From Thiorhodovibrio frisius (GTDB taxonomy: Bacteria > Pseudomonadota > Gammaproteobacteria > Chromatiales > Chromatiaceae), in NCBI RefSeq assembly GCF_033954835.1, contig NZ_CP121471.1, forward strand, positions 434,001-498,000: 64,000 nt of DNA. Direction: 5' to 3'. The notes beneath the pieces are model-generated. The model saw only the letters and a program-made list of their open reading frames with translations, did no database searches and had not been told where the DNA came from. This document shows, piece by piece, positions 63-8,427 of this stretch; the first letter of the stretch is position 1, and each line of letters starts with the position of its first letter. Both the position numbers and the translations under genes were made by a program.

Positions 63-995
63 ATGAATCGCCGTCAATGGCTAAAAGCACTCGGGGCTGG
101 CCTGCTCTGGCCGATTGGTGGTGGTCCCGCACGGGCAGCGAGCAACAAGTTCCCAACCCCGTTGCGGCCGTTGGAGCCGCGCCCAACGGCGACTCCTTTC
201 GAAGCCAACAACCGCGTAAACCTGGCGGCCCTGCTGGAGCCTTCGCGATCCTGCTGTATCGGCCTTGGCACGGGTGCGAGACACTTTATCCAAACCCTGA
301 AGCGTCGCACCGATATCGACCAAGTCGAGCTGATGGCGCAGTCGGCACTGGAGCCTCGGGCTGTTACCGATTGGCTGCACGCCCAGGTCGCTCCGGGCGA
401 CTATGTCGTGGTGGTCATTGACGCCAGTGATCCGCGCGCCGTCGCTGACTTGGCCCGGCATGCCCCAGATTGGCGACCGCCGGAATGCGTCTACTGCGTC
501 GCGGTGGTGATCAATCAGCCAGCGCACCTCGCCTCAGTTCCCTGGAACGCAACGGAACAAGCCGCGTTGGACCGCGCCTTTGATGCCGTTATCGAACCGG
601 CGCCCGGCATGGCTGCCGCCCAGCGGCTGGCTATCCAACTGCTTATCGACGGCACGCTGCTGTTATCCCGCACCCCCATCGGTTACGACCCAGGCGACAT
701 TCGCGAGTGTCTGAAGCGCACGAAACAATTTCGCACCGCTGCCACAGTGTGGCATCGCCCCGATCAACGCGAGCGCGCGTTGCAGCGGTTGCGACAGCGC
801 GGACTGGCGCATCCCCCTGGAGACTTGCTCGCCTTCGTGCATGCCGGCAAGGGGCTGAGCATCCAGGAATTCTTCGACCTGATGGGTGAGCTGGAGATGC
901 GCTTGCCAGTGCGTGAGGAAGCCGTTCTGGTCGCGAGCGGCTTCTTGCATGAGGACTGGCCGCGCGACCGGCGGGTGCTGGGGGTGACGGGCTGA
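63..995 (+). CDS. FtsZ-like protein with twin-arginine-type leader
   Basis: The 310-residue product starts with an RR leader (MNRRQWLKALGAG, then a hydrophobic run and ARA). From about residue 45 the order of elements follows FtsZ: a GLGTGARHF glycine stretch, a DYVVVVIDAS strand, a VVINQPA segment where FtsZ has its VVTKPF strand, ITDL-like LLIDGTLLLSRT, a DIRECLK helix and a C-terminal half (LLAFVHAGKGLSIQEFFDLM, then VLGVTG) that parallels the FtsZ ITAG and VTVIATG segments. The tubulin signature GGGTGTG is absent, so GTP hydrolysis is doubtful. A GGAGGG ribosome site precedes the ATG. The next gene has a similar leader. The fold assignment is by eye, and the function is unknown. Confidence 0.6.
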   Translation: MNRRQWLKALGAGLLWPIGGGPARAASNKFPTPLRPLEPRPTATPFEANNRVNLAALLEPSRSCCIGLGTGARHFIQTLKRRTDIDQVELMAQSALEPRAVTDWLHAQVAPGDYVVVVIDASDPRAVADLARHAPDWRPPECVYCVAVVINQPAHLASVPWNATEQAALDRAFDAVIEPAPGMAAAQRLAIQLLIDGTLLLSRTPIGYDPGDIRECLKRTKQFRTAATVWHRPDQRERALQRLRQRGLAHPPGDLLAFVHAGKGLSIQEFFDLMGELEMRLPVREEAVLVASGFLHEDWPRDRRVLGVTG

Positions 996-1135
996 TCCTG
1001 CGAGGGGTTGCCGGTCAGGCGATGATGGACCGCCAAAGGACCATCGACTGGCGCGCGACATGCGACTGATTCTGTCGTGTTGGCGCGCTAGACTGGCTCT
1101 CATGCGTTGATCGTCGGTTGGGGAGATGACAGAAA

Positions 1136-2062
1136 ATGATGAACAGGCGCCATTGCTTGCAACGCTTGGGTACTGCTGGTCTCGGCAGCGCTTGGCCGGT
1201 AATTGCGGGCATGCCAGCGCCAGAGCGGCTCGCGACCTGGGTCGACGGCAAGGCTGCCGCGGAGCGCCACTCAGAGCGGGCTCATTCGTTAGCGCCGGAG
1301 GACGCTTTCCACCTGGCCAAGTTGATTCCCGAGTTCCGCTTCGAGACCTTTGTCCGAGGCCAGTCCAATGCCGCCGCCTGGGAGGCGTGCCAGCGCATCG
1401 CGGGTGATCCCGCATCTGCCCATGGCGCGCTCTACCTGCAAGGCGGGCAGGGACTCGGCAAATCGCATCTGATGAATGCCATTGGTTATCAAGTCCTTGC
1501 GCAAAATCCCCGCGCAAAGGTCCGTTTTGTCCACTCCGAGCGCTTCGCCTTTGAGCTCAGACAACTGCGCGAAGCTGGTCAGCCCGGGCAAATCGAAACC
1601 GGTCTGGATCAGTATCGGAACCTCGATTTGCTGTTGTTTGACGATCCAGGATTCCTGAGCAATAAGCCGAGCGCGCAATCTGTCTTTGCTCATGTCTTTC
1701 AAACGCTGCTTGAGCGCGGGAAGACCCTCGTCTTTTCCGACGAGCGATTCATGGCCATGGTTCCGGGGATCAATCACCGCTTGCGCGATCTGTTTTCCCA
1801 ATCAGTCGAGATTTCGGTGGCGGCACCCGATCTGGAAACCCGGCTGGCCATCCTCCGCCACCGAGCGGCTTGGTGGAAGATCGAGCTACCCGAGGGCGTG
1901 GCCATGGATCTGGCGACATCCTGCCCGACCAACGTCAGGGAGCTGGAAGGAGCCCTGCGACGCCTGATGGCGGAGTCGCGGTACGTTGGTATTCCGATTG
2001 ATCCTCGGATGGCGCGTCGTGTGCTGCGAGATTTCAGTCCGCTGGCCAACGCGGTCACTTGA
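1136..2062 (+). CDS. DnaA-type AAA+ ATPase with leader, no DNA-binding domain
   Basis: The product is 308 residues. After an N-terminal MNRR leader-like stretch and a linker, a DnaA domain III follows: Walker A GGQGLGKSH near residue 102, Walker B LLLFDDPGF near 165, a sensor 1 strand, arginine-finger region INHRLRDLF, PDLETRLAIL, and sensor 2 TNVRELEGALRR. The protein ends there, so the DnaA helix-turn-helix domain IV is missing. Hda has the same domain loss but no such leader. It lies 140 bases after the FtsZ-like gene on the same strand and probably forms a pair with it. Two ATGs (1136, 1139) are possible starts. ATPase fold is near certain; the role is unknown. Confidence 0.8.
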   Translation: MMNRRHCLQRLGTAGLGSAWPVIAGMPAPERLATWVDGKAAAERHSERAHSLAPEDAFHLAKLIPEFRFETFVRGQSNAAAWEACQRIAGDPASAHGALYLQGGQGLGKSHLMNAIGYQVLAQNPRAKVRFVHSERFAFELRQLREAGQPGQIETGLDQYRNLDLLLFDDPGFLSNKPSAQSVFAHVFQTLLERGKTLVFSDERFMAMVPGINHRLRDLFSQSVEISVAAPDLETRLAILRHRAAWWKIELPEGVAMDLATSCPTNVRELEGALRRLMAESRYVGIPIDPRMARRVLRDFSPLANAVT

Positions 2063-2138: not shown

Positions 2139-2913
2139 ATGTTCATGCAAACCGCGACTCATTGCCGCCTCATCGCCTCCCCGAACACCTGGATCGAAGG
2201 CGAGGCCCTGCGCCAACTGGACCACACCGCCGCATTGCCCGGCATGCGCGCCGCCGTTGGGCTGCCCGACCTCAAGGCGCACGATCAAGCCATCCACTGG
2301 GCCGAAGCCAATCGCCGCCTGATCGCCCGGCGCCCTCAACGCGGACGCCGAGCGGCGACTCGATGTCTGACACAACCTGGTCGTGGCCACCGACTGGGCC
2401 GGCGAGCCTCTCTGGCTCCATCGCAAAGGCGCCGCCCCAGCCGATCGCGGCCCCGTGGTCATCCCCGGCTCGCGCGGCACCCTGTCCTATCTGGTCAATC
2501 CCCTGATCCAGTCTGGGAACGAAACCAGCACCGCCATCGACACCAGCCTGCGTTCCCTGGCCCATGGCGCCGGGCGCAAATGGAAGCGCGGCGACGCCCG
2601 CCCGCGCCTCAGCGCCCGCCAGCGTCCCGAGGACCTGCGCACCACCGCGCTCGGCAGCCAGGTCATCTGCGACGACAAAGAACTGCTCTATGACGAAGCC
2701 CCGGAAGCCTACAAAGGCATCGACCAAGTGGTCGCCGACCTGGTCGACGCCGGACTCTGTCAGATCATCGCCACCCTGCGCCCGGTGCTGACCTACAAGC
2801 TGCGCCGCGCTGATCGCACCGGAGCGACTAAGGGACCAAGCACAGCGCGCGGCTCCGGTAAGTCCAGGCCAAATTCCAAGCTCAAGGCCAAATCCAAACA
2901 GGCCCAGCGATGA
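2139..2913 (+). pseudogene. RtcB-family RNA ligase remnant (rtcB2-like, prfH partner)
   Basis: The N-terminus (TWIEGEALRQLDHTAALPG, then AAVGLPDL) is typical of RtcB, but at about position 2275 it jumps straight to a segment from the middle of the protein (DQAIHWAEANRRLIA), so most of the metal-binding core is deleted. A frameshift follows near 2328, then an in-frame TGA at about 2368-2370 just before HNLVVATDWAGEPLWLHRKG. The C-terminal third (IPGSRGTLSYLV to LTYKLRRA) reads on to 2913, overlapping the prfH start by four bases. RtcB homologues paired with PrfH rejoin broken 16S rRNA in damaged ribosomes. This one cannot be active. Confidence 0.85.
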
Positions 2914-3545
2914 GCACCCCAACGCTCTGGCTACAACTCTCCGCCGGGCGCTGTCCCGCCGAATGCGAATGGGTCGTCGGCCAGCTCGCCCCGCGCCTGA
3001 CCGCCGAGCTGACCAACCGCGGCCTCGCCGTCGAGGAGATCGACCGCACCCCCGGCCAGCACGCCGGCGACGCGCGCTCAGTGCTGCTGCGCGTCAGCGG
3101 CCCCGAGGTCGAGACGCGCGTGACCGATTGGCTCGGCACCATCCAATGGACCGGCGCCAGCCCCTATCGCCCGCACCACAAGCGCAAGAACTGGTTCGTC
3201 AGCATCGCGGCATTCACGGAACCGACGGTCTATACTTGGAACGAGCACGACCTGCGCATCGAAACCCAGCGCGCCTCCGGCCCTGGCGGCCAGCATGTCA
3301 ATCGCACCGAGAGTGCCGTGCGCATCACCCATCAACCGACCGGACTCAGCGTGCTGGCCCAGGAAGAGCGCTCCCAGCACATGAACCGACGGCTGGCGCT
3401 GGCGCGGCTTGACGCGTTGTTGGCTGAAAGGGAAGCCGAAAGGCGGCGAGCGGCCGAGGACAAGCGCTGGCGGCAGCATACCCAGTTAGAGCGCGGCAAT
3501 GCCGTGCGGGTTTATCGGAGAGCGGATTTCCGGTGCGAAAGGTGA
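2910..3545 (+). CDS. prfH: Peptide chain release factor H (PrfH)
   Basis: The 211-residue protein carries the release-factor GGQ signature in [19 protein letters not shown] (about residues 127-145) and lacks the stop-codon recognition domains of RF1/RF2, as expected of PrfH. Its start overlaps the stop of the rtcB-like remnant (ATGA), the usual rtcB2-prfH operon arrangement. PrfH is known to act on ribosomes cleaved in the 16S decoding centre, releasing the peptide so that the partner RtcB can religate the rRNA. Here the partner is broken, so PrfH would need a ligase elsewhere or is itself without selection. The reading frame looks intact. Confidence 0.92.
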
Positions 3546-3626: not shown

Positions 3627-5750
3627 ATGAGTATATTTGACAATGGCCATGAGGTGGAAACCCTAACGATTAAGGAGCTGATTGAGCATCGCTTGGGTAA
3701 AGTTAAGCCACGCCTTTGGCTACCCCCCATTCAGCGTTCCATGGTCTGGACCAATGCCCAGATCATCAACTACTGGGACAGCCTGCTGCGCGGTTATCCG
3801 CCGGGATTGATGATGGTGCATCGGGTGGACGGCAGTGCTGGTGAGGCAGCTAAGCATGGGGCGGATGCGGAGGGGAAAATCCAGGCCGGAGAAGTTTCCG
3901 CGAATGATTTGCAACTCTTCGACGGTCAACAACGAATGGCGACGATTTTGCTCGGGCTGGGATTGGGGCAGCTGCAGGGTACGCACAAACTCTGGGTGGA
4001 TCTGGGTCAAGAGCCGAAGCAGCATGCGGATACCCGCTTCCAATTGCGTATCTCTACGATTGGCCAACCTTTCGGCTATGCAAGGGATTATCCCAATAAT
4101 AAGTTCCGGCTGGATGAGCGCCGAGAGGCCTGGAAGAACGTCGCTGGAGACAACTACGCTGACAAACTCGCTGCGGACAATTTGTTTTTAAACGATGATC
4201 GTAAAGCTCCCTTGATCGAAGGGGTGTGTCCGGTTTTGCTTAAGAAAATATGGGAGTTGCATAAGGCTGACAGCAATACCGCTTTGGCTGAGAAGCTGGC
4301 GATACTGCCAGGTGCGGACAAAGGACGGGCTGAGGAGTTTGCGAAAGCCTTTGAAACAGCTGTTAAGAGCTCAGTTATCCTACAATTGGTAGGTCCGGAT
4401 GTCGTGGGTAACGAGTCTTCATACGTCCGTTTTTTCAGCCGACTAGGACAGGGCGGCACGCGCTTATCTGATGACGAGCTGAGCTACTCCATGATCAAGG
4501 CCCGTTACCCCGAAATTCGCGAGAAGATGAACGGAATCATGGTCAATCGGGTTGCAGGACGATTGGCAAGCGAGGTGGAACTGGTGCTTGCGATCCTGCG
4601 CGTAGCAAAATTGTTAAAGCCTTGGAAGGACGCCAGTGATTGGGAAAAGACCGGGCGGCCAAATCCAAACCTTGTTTCGAAGCTCGATAAGAATACGGAG
4701 GAGGAATTCAAGCGATTGCTGGGGTTGGCGTCCGATGATTTCGGCTTGCTAATGATATTGAAGAAATTGCGAACAGGGCTAATATATTCTAAAGAGAACT
4801 CAAAGGGCTTTCCGGCAATGCTCATCGCCCGATTGCCCCATCAACTACTGGATTTACTGATCCTGTTCGCTGCGCTTAATGCGGAGGGTGATTGGCCGGG
4901 TAATGGGGACGCACGGGATCATCTGATTGCCTTTTGCCTCTATTGGCTGCTATACGTTGGTTATCCAGACAAGGCGGCGGATCTTGTCTATAGAAAATTC
5001 CTCGAGAAGGAAGATCAGACTCTGGACCGCCGGTTTTTTAGTGGTTTGATCCATGATTTCGAGGATGCCGGAATCTGTTCCGTTGTCGCTACCCTGCCAG
5101 AGTTTGAGCGTATCAGGGAGAAAGCGAACGAGCCGCCCGACGGCATGTTGCTTCGCCCATGGGCCGAGCGTTTTGGTGGTGCGGCGGTTATGGATAAGGA
5201 TCACGAGCGGAAACCCGGCGAGGCCCTGCGAAACATTTCGACCAATCGCAAGCTGATTAGTCATGCCCTGATGTGGTTACAACGGGATTATCTGAGCAGA
5301 AAGTATCCAATGTTCGATCCGACCTCTGGACGGGACGAGGATCTGCCTGTGGACCTAGATCATTTAATTCCGCAGAAGCGGTTTCGTTTCCATTGGACTT
5401 CTTGGCAGTCATACATTAACGAAGAAGTTAAAGATAGCAACTACTGGAATCATCGGGATACAATTGGGCACTCGCTCGGGAATTTTCGCTGGCTGGATGC
5501 CTCCGAGAATCGAAGTCGACATTACGACGAGATAGAAGATGGGGCGAAAGATGATTTCCTGATAGAAGATATTGACGCATGGAATACTCTGATTCGGAAA
5601 CAGAACACGGAGAAGCGATGGGATAAGGCAGATATTCAGTATTTGCAAACCTTGATCGACATGCGCACCCTTTTTCTGTGTGAGAAAATTCTGGATGAAG
5701 GGGGAATATGGGCGATATCTGAAGGAGACGTCAAAGCCTTGTCAGAGTAG
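3627..5750 (+). CDS. DUF262/DUF1524-type HNH nuclease, probable defence protein
   Basis: The 707-residue protein begins with a DUF262 (ParB-like) domain: LWLPPIQRSMVW near residue 30 and the nucleotide-binding LFDGQQRMATIL near 97-108. A long helical middle follows. The C-terminus has an HNH-type module with VDLDHLIPQ near 573 and GNFRWLDASENRSR near 617, as in DUF1524 and GmrS/GmrD fusions. Such proteins restrict modified phage DNA (GmrSD, BrxU, SspE types). It stands alone behind prfH with a GAGGAGG ribosome site. Its lower GC and relaxed codon use compared with the preceding genes point to transfer. Target specificity cannot be read from the sequence. Confidence 0.8.
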   Translation: MSIFDNGHEVETLTIKELIEHRLGKVKPRLWLPPIQRSMVWTNAQIINYWDSLLRGYPPGLMMVHRVDGSAGEAAKHGADAEGKIQAGEVSANDLQLFDGQQRMATILLGLGLGQLQGTHKLWVDLGQEPKQHADTRFQLRISTIGQPFGYARDYPNNKFRLDERREAWKNVAGDNYADKLAADNLFLNDDRKAPLIEGVCPVLLKKIWELHKADSNTALAEKLAILPGADKGRAEEFAKAFETAVKSSVILQLVGPDVVGNESSYVRFFSRLGQGGTRLSDDELSYSMIKARYPEIREKMNGIMVNRVAGRLASEVELVLAILRVAKLLKPWKDASDWEKTGRPNPNLVSKLDKNTEEEFKRLLGLASDDFGLLMILKKLRTGLIYSKENSKGFPAMLIARLPHQLLDLLILFAALNAEGDWPGNGDARDHLIAFCLYWLLYVGYPDKAADLVYRKFLEKEDQTLDRRFFSGLIHDFEDAGICSVVATLPEFERIREKANEPPDGMLLRPWAERFGGAAVMDKDHERKPGEALRNISTNRKLISHALMWLQRDYLSRKYPMFDPTSGRDEDLPVDLDHLIPQKRFRFHWTSWQSYINEEVKDSNYWNHRDTIGHSLGNFRWLDASENRSRHYDEIEDGAKDDFLIEDIDAWNTLIRKQNTEKRWDKADIQYLQTLIDMRTLFLCEKILDEGGIWAISEGDVKALSE

Positions 5751-7083: not shown

Positions 7084-7395
7084 TTGGAATTCTCTGGTTG
7101 TGGGCCTGTTTTGGTTAGGCGGATCGAGCCTGTCATGGCTGGGAGCAGAGTTTTTTCCCTGCCTTGTAATCGAACAATAGTCGATCTGTGCGACACGCCA
7201 TGACGTGTAGAACCTTTCGGCCCCGCGTGCCGGCTATCGAGCGAGCCCGTGAGCACCCCGAAGTAGTGAAGAGCGGCTTCGACAATCGCTTCGGCATGGC
7301 GATTGGCGTTGGATTTTTGTCAACGGATAAACGCCACCTCGTAGCTCAAAGCACTCACGTCAAACTCTGTCCTATACTCATGCCATCATTTGGTC

Positions 7396-8427
7396 ATGAG
7401 AATTTCCGGCATGAGTGCGACCCACCAGGAGCGCATTGAGCGCTTGCAAGCCCTGTTCGCTCGAATCTCGCCACCCCAGACGGCGCCGGAGCGCTGCGTC
7501 GATGTTGGGCGGCTCGAGCGGCTGTTGGGGGATGAATACGGCACTGATGCCTCCGCGGCTGCGCGGCGGCGCCGGCTGCAGCGGGATCTGACCGAGCTGA
7601 TTCGCGACGAGCGCATCGTTGCGGTCAACCCCGGTGGCAAGCCGTTGCGTTATCGCCGGCGGGCCGAGGTGGGGGATGATGATCCGAACGTGATCGCCTA
7701 TACCCGCCAGTTGATTGACCAAACGGTGACCGACCTGGTGCCCAAGGGGCGGCTCGAGGCGCTGTGGCGCAAGCTGGTGGTGTCCGACCTGGTGCCGGCA
7801 CTGGATGATCAGCGCCTGCGGATTCTGTCCGCCGAGCAGCGGCTGATTCCGGCGAAGGTGCGCCCGGCGATTCTGAGCACCGTCATCAGCGGCGTGGCCG
7901 AGCAGCGCGTCCTGAAAGTGAAATATCGCAAAGCCTCAAGCGAGCTCAGCACCCCGCGCTTGCATCCGCAAGCCCTGGTGCAGCGCGGACCCGTGATCTA
8001 CCTGGTGGCGCTCAAGAATGACGAGCCCTCGCGTGTGCAGTTCTATGCCCTGCATCGCATGGTGAGCGTCGAGCTGACCGAGGACGCGGCCCGCGCGGCC
8101 GACGGGTTCGACCTGGACCGGGCGATTGTGGAGGGCCTGGTGGACTTCGGCCGTGGGGAGGCCATCGCCTTGGAACTGCGCGTGCGCGGCTACCTGACCG
8201 ACGTGTTGGAAGCCTGCCCATTGGCCGAAGAACAGCTTACCCTGCCCGAGCCGGATGACAGCGACTTCGATCTGCGGCTGCACGCGACTGTTCCCTCGAG
8301 CGGCGCGCTGTTGCGCTGGCTGCTGGCGGGCGGGGACAATCTGGAGGTGGTGGCGCCGGACGGGATGCGGCGCAATGTGGCCGCGCAGATCAACAAGGCA
8401 TCGGCGCTTTACGCGGATGTGCTTTAA
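7396..8427 (+). CDS. WYL-domain transcriptional regulator
   Basis: The product is about 343 residues. It opens with a winged-helix region (RIERLQALFARI, then ARRRRLQRDLTELIRDERI) and a WYL-type middle: VLKVKYRKAS, LHPQALVQRGPVIYLVAL, VQFYALHRMVSVEL. A WCX-like C-terminal part follows. WYL regulators sense nucleic-acid ligands and often control DNA repair or defence genes. The stop overlaps an ATG of the recC frame (TAATG), so the two were one operon. Starts at TTG 7390, ATG 7396 and ATG 7411 are possible. The preceding 310 bases (7084-7389) hold nothing recognisable. Confidence 0.85.
   Translation: MRISGMSATHQERIERLQALFARISPPQTAPERCVDVGRLERLLGDEYGTDASAAARRRRLQRDLTELIRDERIVAVNPGGKPLRYRRRAEVGDDDPNVIAYTRQLIDQTVTDLVPKGRLEALWRKLVVSDLVPALDDQRLRILSAEQRLIPAKVRPAILSTVISGVAEQRVLKVKYRKASSELSTPRLHPQALVQRGPVIYLVALKNDEPSRVQFYALHRMVSVELTEDAARAADGFDLDRAIVEGLVDFGRGEAIALELRVRGYLTDVLEACPLAEEQLTLPEPDDSDFDLRLHATVPSSGALLRWLLAGGDNLEVVAPDGMRRNVAAQINKASALYADVL

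What the first reader, a model, noticed from the sequence alone, without database searches (positions are those of the whole stretch)
63..2062. FtsZ-like and DnaA-like proteins paired behind twin-arginine-type leaders
Two adjacent genes each start with an MNRRxxLxxLG leader. The first follows the FtsZ order of elements but lacks GGGTGTG. The second is a DnaA AAA+ domain with all ATPase motifs and no DNA-binding domain. A cytoskeletal GTPase relative beside a replication-initiator relative, both with export- or membrane-type leaders, is not an arrangement I know. An ATPase in the periplasm would lack ATP, so the leaders may be anchors or relics. The pair could be an undescribed assembly or positioning module.
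Basis: partly seen in the sequence, partly recalled or inferred. Interest (0 to 1): 0.72.

Follow-up and report, generated by a model that had tools for sequence, protein, structure and literature searches.

The report
Broken-GTPase FtsZ cousin beside RNA repair
Purple sulfur bacteria carry a family of relatives of the cell-division protein FtsZ that lack the GTP-binding signature and mostly bear an export-type leader; several sit beside genes that repair cut ribosomes, and truncated DnaA- and DnaB-like proteins with similar leaders occur in the same kind of place, which hints at a link between RNA repair and cell-cycle control.

Summary
The sequence observation holds with one correction. P1 (63-995) belongs to an unnamed family of FtsZ homologues. 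The family profile finds the FtsZ C-terminal half (PDB best E 7e-11; FtsZ genes down to 7e-15). GGGTGTG is absent in 27 of 27 aligned members, but the FtsZ T7-loop acids stay (D209 26/27, D212 25/27). P2 (1136-2062) is a DnaA AAA+ domain without a DNA-binding domain; Walker A/B remain, but the box VII arginine is Leu (Arg in 29/29 DnaA), so "all ATPase motifs" is wrong. RR leaders occur in 21 of 27 family rows. The P1-P2 pair is not a conserved module: P2 was seen only in the window's genome among 204 order genomes. The recurring partner is the RtcB-PrfH ribosome-repair cassette: P1 lies in 9 of 22 PrfH loci. The neighbouring paralogous cassette carries, in P2's place, a leader-bearing truncated DnaB; two other genera have such DnaBs. 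Best guess: defective copies of cell-cycle NTPases recruited to RNA-repair/defence islands, perhaps to hold the cell cycle during repair. Family and linkage are well supported; mechanism and leader function are inference.

The parts
63..995 (+). P1: FtsZ homologue without the GGGTGTG signature, with twin-arginine-type leader
   Evidence: body dN/dS 0.18 against the sister species
63..152 (+). P1 leader, residues 1-30 (MNRRQWLKALGAGLLWPIGGGPARAASNKF)
   Evidence: direct reading; RR leader in 21 of 27 family rows; dN/dS 0.83 on 30 codons
642..971 (+). P1 residues 194-303: region homologous to the FtsZ C-terminal half
   Evidence: profile A1 hits FtsZ at about 194-303; A2 at 201-307
678..701 (+). 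T7-loop equivalent IGYDPGDI (FtsZ INVDFADV); D209 and D212 kept
   Evidence: D209 26/27, D212 25/27
1136..2062 (+). P2: DnaA AAA+ domain with twin-arginine-type leader, no DNA-binding domain
1139..1219 (+). P2 leader, residues 1-27 (MNRRHCLQRLGTAGLGSAWPVIAGMPA)
   Evidence: direct reading
1790..1792 (+). P2 codon 218: Leu where 29 of 29 DnaA have Arg (box VII arginine)
2139..2913 (+). broken rtcB: N- and C-terminal parts in different frames, middle missing
   Evidence: an unbroken rtcB lies in the neighbouring cassette (L013:6964-8196)
2910..3545 (+). prfH, peptide chain release factor H
   Evidence: TIGR03072 238 bits, cut-off 166.65
3627..5750 (+). neighbour: GmrSD_N (DUF262-type) protein
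   Evidence: PF03235 1.8e-14; PADLOC HEC-05 2e-16
7390..8427 (+). neighbour: WYL-WCX regulator; WYL genes lie within 8 kb of P1 in 9 of 38 loci

Best explanation
P1 and P2 are accessory genes in front of an RtcB-PrfH ribosome-repair cassette in a defence/repair island. P1 descends from FtsZ: it lacks the nucleotide-binding signature and keeps the C-terminal half with the T7 acids. P2 is a cut-down DnaA ATPase lacking the DNA-binding domain and the box VII arginine. It sits in a slot that in the neighbouring cassette holds a cut-down DnaB. I infer that these are defective copies of cell-cycle NTPases which join or cap the host's FtsZ, DnaA or DnaB assemblies and so slow division or replication while RtcB and PrfH repair and clear damaged ribosomes. 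The leaders probably place them at the membrane through the Tat route. Shown here: homology, residue losses, gene linkage, leader recurrence. Inferred: binding to host machines, cell-cycle hold, leader function.
For: FtsZ descent. Three relatives (L102, L016, L101) still end in a form of the FtsZ C-terminal peptide (DLDIPAFLRNQT, SDIPFFLR, RDIPFFLQ), and L102 has both leader and tail, which fits an origin on the cytoplasmic side. T7 acids kept without the signature loop. P2 lost Arg218 but kept Walker A/B. Leader-bearing DnaBs in three genera lack the N-domain; the H4 Arg is lost in 2 of 3, Walker A Lys and catalytic Glu in 1 of 3. One stands directly before an rtcB (G223), one between P1 and rtcB (L013), and a DnaB-like remnant, as I read the translation, is fused to rtcB in G001 (L015). 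P1 in 9 of 22 PrfH loci; 11 of 210 genomes carry both, against 26 with P1 and 17 with PrfH. P1 body dN/dS 0.18.
Against: A working Tat leader would take the proteins out of the cytoplasm, away from FtsZ, DnaA and DnaB. The curated Tat models do not score P1 or P2. P2 is one case in 204 genomes. 13 of 22 PrfH loci have no P1 in the stretch looked at, and 29 of 38 P1 loci show no PrfH within 8 kb, some of them cut by contig ends. The trimmed structure model found no FtsZ in its top 50 PDB matches. The window-type clade alone finds 0 of 16 FtsZ. Residues 31-60 of P1 show dN/dS 1.98 against the sister species. The Fisher test ignores relatedness. The DnaB leaders align loosely with DnaB's own linker and could be remodelled linker. 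One DnaB-like (window genome) keeps all catalytic residues checked. No interaction has been tested.
Confidence: 0.27

Rival explanations
1. P1 is a nucleotide-free scaffold or sensor subunit of the islands themselves: it assembles with the tandem AAA+ ATPase and the PP2C phosphatase and regulates effectors such as RtcB-PrfH or the SNF2-PLD set; host cell division is not involved.
For: AAA+ within 8 kb in 14 of 38 P1 loci, PP2C in 10, p141 in 9, WYL in 9; P1 and AAA+ on the same strand and near each other in L101, L102, L103, L106; tubulin and FtsZ-superfamily parts are described in other conflict systems (PMC7159879, passages).
Against: Does not explain why the T7 acids and, in three members, the FtsZ tail persist, nor the DnaA and DnaB companions; each single partner is missing from more than half of the 38 loci.
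Confidence: 0.28
2. The leaders are working Tat signals and P1/P2 are periplasmic or membrane-anchored proteins with a function of their own there.
For: Leaders look like two of the genome's own TIGR01409-positive leaders (MNRRDFVKTTGALAAV..., KD12 1.38; MQRRDFIKAAGAAAI..., 1.23; P1 1.28, P2 1.12; the other six of eight regions fetched gave no leader to my pattern); 21 of 27 family rows keep RR.
Against: 6 of 27 rows lack the RR pattern, which needs at least 3 state changes on the tree; charged residues interrupt the h-region in some (L099, L100, L117); TIGR01409 hits 1 of 27 at E<=1, best 0.15, PF10518 1 of 27, 0.053; RtcB and PrfH act in the cytoplasm (recalled).
Confidence: 0.18
3. P1 and P2 are decaying debris of mobile defence islands with no present function.
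For: Broken copies: G000:2252633-2253189, G000:419481-419926, L021, L113, L116, L194; the window's own rtcB is broken.
Against: P1 body dN/dS 0.18 between species and 0.29 against the paralogue; the 27 near-full-length rows span a deep split in the tree.
Confidence: 0.15
4. One reading: an FtsZ-like and DnaA-like positioning or assembly module.
For: Adjacency and shared leader style in the window.
Against: P2 seen in 1 of 204 order genomes; no P2 within 8 kb in 37 of 38 P1 loci.
Confidence: 0.04

Closest known systems
FtsZ (TIGR00065 / PF12327)
   Same: C-terminal half, T7 acids, order of secondary-structure elements in the predicted model as I read it, FtsZ-type tail in three relatives
   Different: no GGGTGTG, T7 Asn replaced, N-terminal leader, not the cell's own FtsZ (a normal ftsZ is at G000:4686207)
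DnaA ATPase domain (TIGR00362) and Hda
   Same: AAA+ domain of DnaA type, no DNA-binding domain (like Hda, recalled)
   Different: closer to DnaA (1e-63) than to Hda (2e-17); leader; box VII Arg lost
RtcB2-PrfH operon
   Same: rtcB (TIGR03073) and prfH (TIGR03072) in order behind P1
   Different: published accessory genes are TPR, Pol-beta, zinc-ribbon and charged proteins (PMC6514570, section 8 read; its supplementary list was not seen); no FtsZ-, DnaA- or DnaB-like gene is named in that section
Tubulin/FtsZ parts of GTPase- and MoxR-centred conflict systems (PMC7159879, passages)
   Same: FtsZ/tubulin homologues inside conflict islands with AAA+
   Different: 0 occurrences of rtcb, dnaa or twin-arginine in its main text

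Membership tests
FtsZ | homology of the C-terminal half | tested here: met
   family profile E 7e-11 in PDB, to 7e-15 in genomes (28 of 28 such loci looked at carry a GGGTGTG ORF); reversed control 0; the window clade alone finds none
FtsZ | tubulin/FtsZ signature GGGTGTG | tested here: not met
   0 of 27 members; the 16 comparison FtsZ were picked by having it
FtsZ | T7 loop NxDxxD | tested here: inconclusive
   both Asp kept (26/27, 25/27), Asn in 0 of 27
FtsZ | C-terminal conserved peptide | tested here: not met
   absent in P1; present in 3 of 43 family ORFs and fragments listed
FtsZ | FtsZ fold | tested here: inconclusive
   full-length model: the only 2 matches at E<=1e-3 are FtsZ (TM 0.50 and 0.48), pLDDT 54; trimmed model: no FtsZ in top 50
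FtsZ | GTP hydrolysis and polymerisation | not testable with these tools
   needs purified protein
DnaA | DnaA-type AAA+ domain | tested here: met
DnaA | box VII arginine | tested here: not met
   Leu218 against Arg in 29/29
DnaA | DNA-binding domain IV | tested here: not met
   TIGR00362 match stops at 339 of 437 and the protein ends 7 residues later
Tat substrate | RR motif with weakly hydrophobic uncharged stretch | tested here: met
   P1 and P2 by pattern
Tat substrate | curated Tat models (TIGR01409, PF10518) | tested here: not met
   no hit for P1 or P2 at E<=10; not among 17 TIGR01409 places of the genome; 1 of 27 family members at E<=1 for each model
Tat substrate | Tat-dependent export | not testable with these tools
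   needs a reporter assay
RtcB-PrfH cassette | same-strand linkage in more than one genome | tested here: met
   P1-rtcB-prfH same strand in the window, L013, L014 (P1 broken), L015, L017, L099, L104, and a P1 fragment in L194 outside the order; L100 has P1-prfH without a called rtcB; L019 is on the opposite strand

The most novel reading that the evidence does not exclude
An export-failure switch. Tat leaders remove faulty FtsZ, DnaA and DnaB copies from the cytoplasm while the membrane is energised. When an attack (phage or bacteriocin) stops Tat export, they stay inside, cap the host's division and replication machines, and hold the cell cycle until RtcB and PrfH have repaired the ribosomes.
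Probability: 0.06. Interest if true: 0.93.

Novelty: new variant of a known kind. Interest (0 to 1): 0.62.

Why it matters
This family (its one annotated member seen, WP_157818096.1, is a hypothetical protein) shows an FtsZ relative without the nucleotide signature placed beside ribosome repair, with DnaA and DnaB derivatives in the same position. If the proteins act on the host machines, RNA repair would be tied to a cell-cycle hold. If the leaders work, NTPase-type folds of the cytoplasm would be exported, which is unexplained. Either outcome can be tested directly.

Tried and rejected
P1 against Pfam, NCBIfam, PADLOC and PDB sequences singly: nothing usable. P1 family against PADLOC: 2 of 27 members to a SAVED-peptidase model, best 0.01, and 1 of 27 to cas_RFas, 0.061; not followed. 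P1 in viral contigs and phages: none; in plasmids one, pTs485 of Candidatus Thiodictyon syntrophicum. P2 in plasmids and phages: 51 and 38 records; the 15 rows shown of each are annotated as DnaA or carry no annotation, and none was examined further. First genome-contig scan with P1 alone: none; the second with A3 found two loci. Global profile alignment of P1 with FtsZ did not align the N-terminal half sensibly, so N-terminal homology rests on the weak structure model alone. The trimmed model did not support FtsZ by Foldseek. Rejected: P2 as Hda (lower); P2 as IstB (lower); a conserved P1-P2 pair.

Count notes: 26 of 210 is my reading's match list, fragments included (the list was cut at weak matches). 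The 27-row alignment leaves out fragments (L105, L113, L116 and others), L112, L123, L126 and L017. Three small fragment places (G193:C213, G194:C143, G039:C58) were not fetched. The 38 loci hold near-identical relatives and are not independent; two of them (L013, L104) hold two P1 copies; the Fisher value (9e-8) is not corrected for relatedness. The output was cut, so L186-L188 were seen in part only. In one search, 18 of the 27 loci L198-L224 gave a usable full-length DnaB. Match lists were cut at the weak end.

Full report
What is there. The window starts with two same-strand genes, P1 (63-995) and P2 (1136-2062), each opening with an RR leader, followed by a broken rtcB (2139-2913) and prfH (2910-3545). 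The window is G000:C1:434001-498000 of a 5.4 Mb single-contig genome.

P1 is an FtsZ homologue. Alone it matches no Pfam or NCBIfam model at E<=10. Relatives were gathered from 92 relatives and 210 order genomes. A 27-row alignment finds FtsZ in the PDB set with E 7e-11; 45 of 46 sequences at E<=1 are FtsZ, the other is GTPase Der at 0.074. In 369 class genomes its best match outside the P1 family is 7e-15; 28 of the 28 such loci that I checked carry a GGGTGTG ORF, that is, FtsZ. Singly, 4 of 27 members reach FtsZ_C (best 0.001) and 4 of 27 TIGR00065 (best 0.0026). Sub-clades were tested apart against 16 FtsZ: 15 found with the MKRR clade, 13 with the tail clade, 0 with the four window-type rows, and 0 reversed FtsZ. 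So the link to FtsZ runs through the family: the window clade alone is too narrow to show it. The match covers the T7 loop and the C-terminal domain; the N-terminal half is not supported by sequence.

Structure. The full-length model (4 sequences, pLDDT 54, pTM 0.56) shows, by my reading, the FtsZ order of strands and helices, and the only two PDB matches at E<=1e-3 are FtsZ, TM 0.50 and 0.48. The trimmed model (pLDDT 60, pTM 0.62) gave no FtsZ among its top 50. I treat the fold as likely but not shown.

Lost and kept residues. GGGTGTG is absent in 27 of 27; an invariant Asp (D120, 27/27) lies in a hhhIDAxDP stretch. D209 and D212, which align with the acids of the FtsZ T7 loop, are kept in 26 and 25 of 27, the window's P1 included; the paralogue in L013 has His for D212. 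That these acids serve GTP hydrolysis in the neighbouring FtsZ subunit is recalled knowledge. Three relatives end in the FtsZ tail form; L102 has leader and tail. That this tail binds FtsA and ZipA is recalled.

P2 is a DnaA AAA+ domain (1e-63 to TIGR00362) of 307-308 residues. Of 136 columns conserved in at least 93% of 29 chromosomal DnaA, 76 are kept. Walker A (Thr to Ser), Walker B DD and the sensor-2 Arg remain; the box VII Arg is Leu218. It was seen only in this genome.

The leader. 21 of 27 family rows have the RR pattern. Loss or gain needs at least three changes on the tree. The leaders resemble two TIGR01409-positive leaders of the same genome (two of eight regions gave a leader to my pattern), yet the curated Tat models miss P1 and P2. 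dN/dS against the sister species is 0.83 for the leader (30 codons), 1.98 for residues 31-60 and 0.18 for the body.

Neighbours. Within 8 kb, 38 P1 loci have AAA+ 14, PP2C 10, PrfH 9, p141 9, WYL 9, RtcB 8, SNF2-PLD-p431 2, P2 1, DnaB-like 1. PrfH is in 17 of 210 order genomes at 22 places; 9 of the 22 have P1 in the same cassette: G000 three times, G001, G019, G036, G114, G196, G199. A P1 fragment lies directly before rtcB-prfH in G277, outside the order (L194). P1-type genes were not found in 397 other genomes of the phylum sample at E<=1e-16, a cut that would miss fragments such as that of G277 (5.6e-16).

The slot behind P1. In the neighbouring cassette of the same genome (G000:428946-432828, in L013) a leader-bearing DnaB RecA domain stands where P2 stands in the window. 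All three match DnaB from about residue 36 on. The H4 Arg is lost in two; Walker A Lys and catalytic Glu in one; the copy in the window's genome keeps all six residues checked.

Reading. The RtcB2-PrfH module was shown to rescue ribosomes cut by colicin E3 and to re-ligate the 16S rRNA in vitro, and to protect an E. coli strain from colicin E3 (PMC9223846, abstract and passages). Accessory genes named for such operons do not include FtsZ, DnaA or DnaB (PMC6514570, section 8). Searches for RtcB with FtsZ-like, FtsZ-like with twin-arginine, and related terms found no account of this family in the held library; the phage papers were seen as listings only. My mechanism (defective copies acting on host machines during repair) fits the losses and the company they keep, but the leader argues against a simple cytoplasmic role, and the scaffold rival is about as likely.

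Noticed in passing
L129:4205-5296 (NZ_CP020372.1, pTs485): A second ftsZ with GGGTGTG and tail DIPAFLRRPTG on a Thiodictyon plasmid, about 7 kb from a P1 relative and next to a Sir2 gene.
   Followed up: partly
window 2139-2913: The window's rtcB is broken while the prfH frame behind it is open.
   Followed up: partly
L013:1844-4864; L102:9095-11769: Tandem AAA+ ATPase (746-1009 aa) with an uncharacterised 141 aa partner (no Pfam hit), recurring with P1 and also near rtcB-prfH without P1 (L183, L184, L191).
   Followed up: partly
L016:567-6480; L101; L226:659-6589: Recurring SNF2 helicase, PLD-like and about 431 aa protein set in the same islands; the best PADLOC model for the helicase is DrmD (2e-18).
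   Followed up: partly
L101:11831-13141: WYL-WCX protein fused to GGDEF near P1, hinting at cyclic-di-GMP control.
   Followed up: no
L015:4352-5761: rtcB of the sister species carries what reads as a DnaB-like remnant fused in front.
   Followed up: partly
L013:6076-6948 against DnaB L198: The DnaB-like leader aligns loosely with DnaB's own linker (RRVFQEARGGG), so it may be remodelled linker rather than an added signal.
   Followed up: partly
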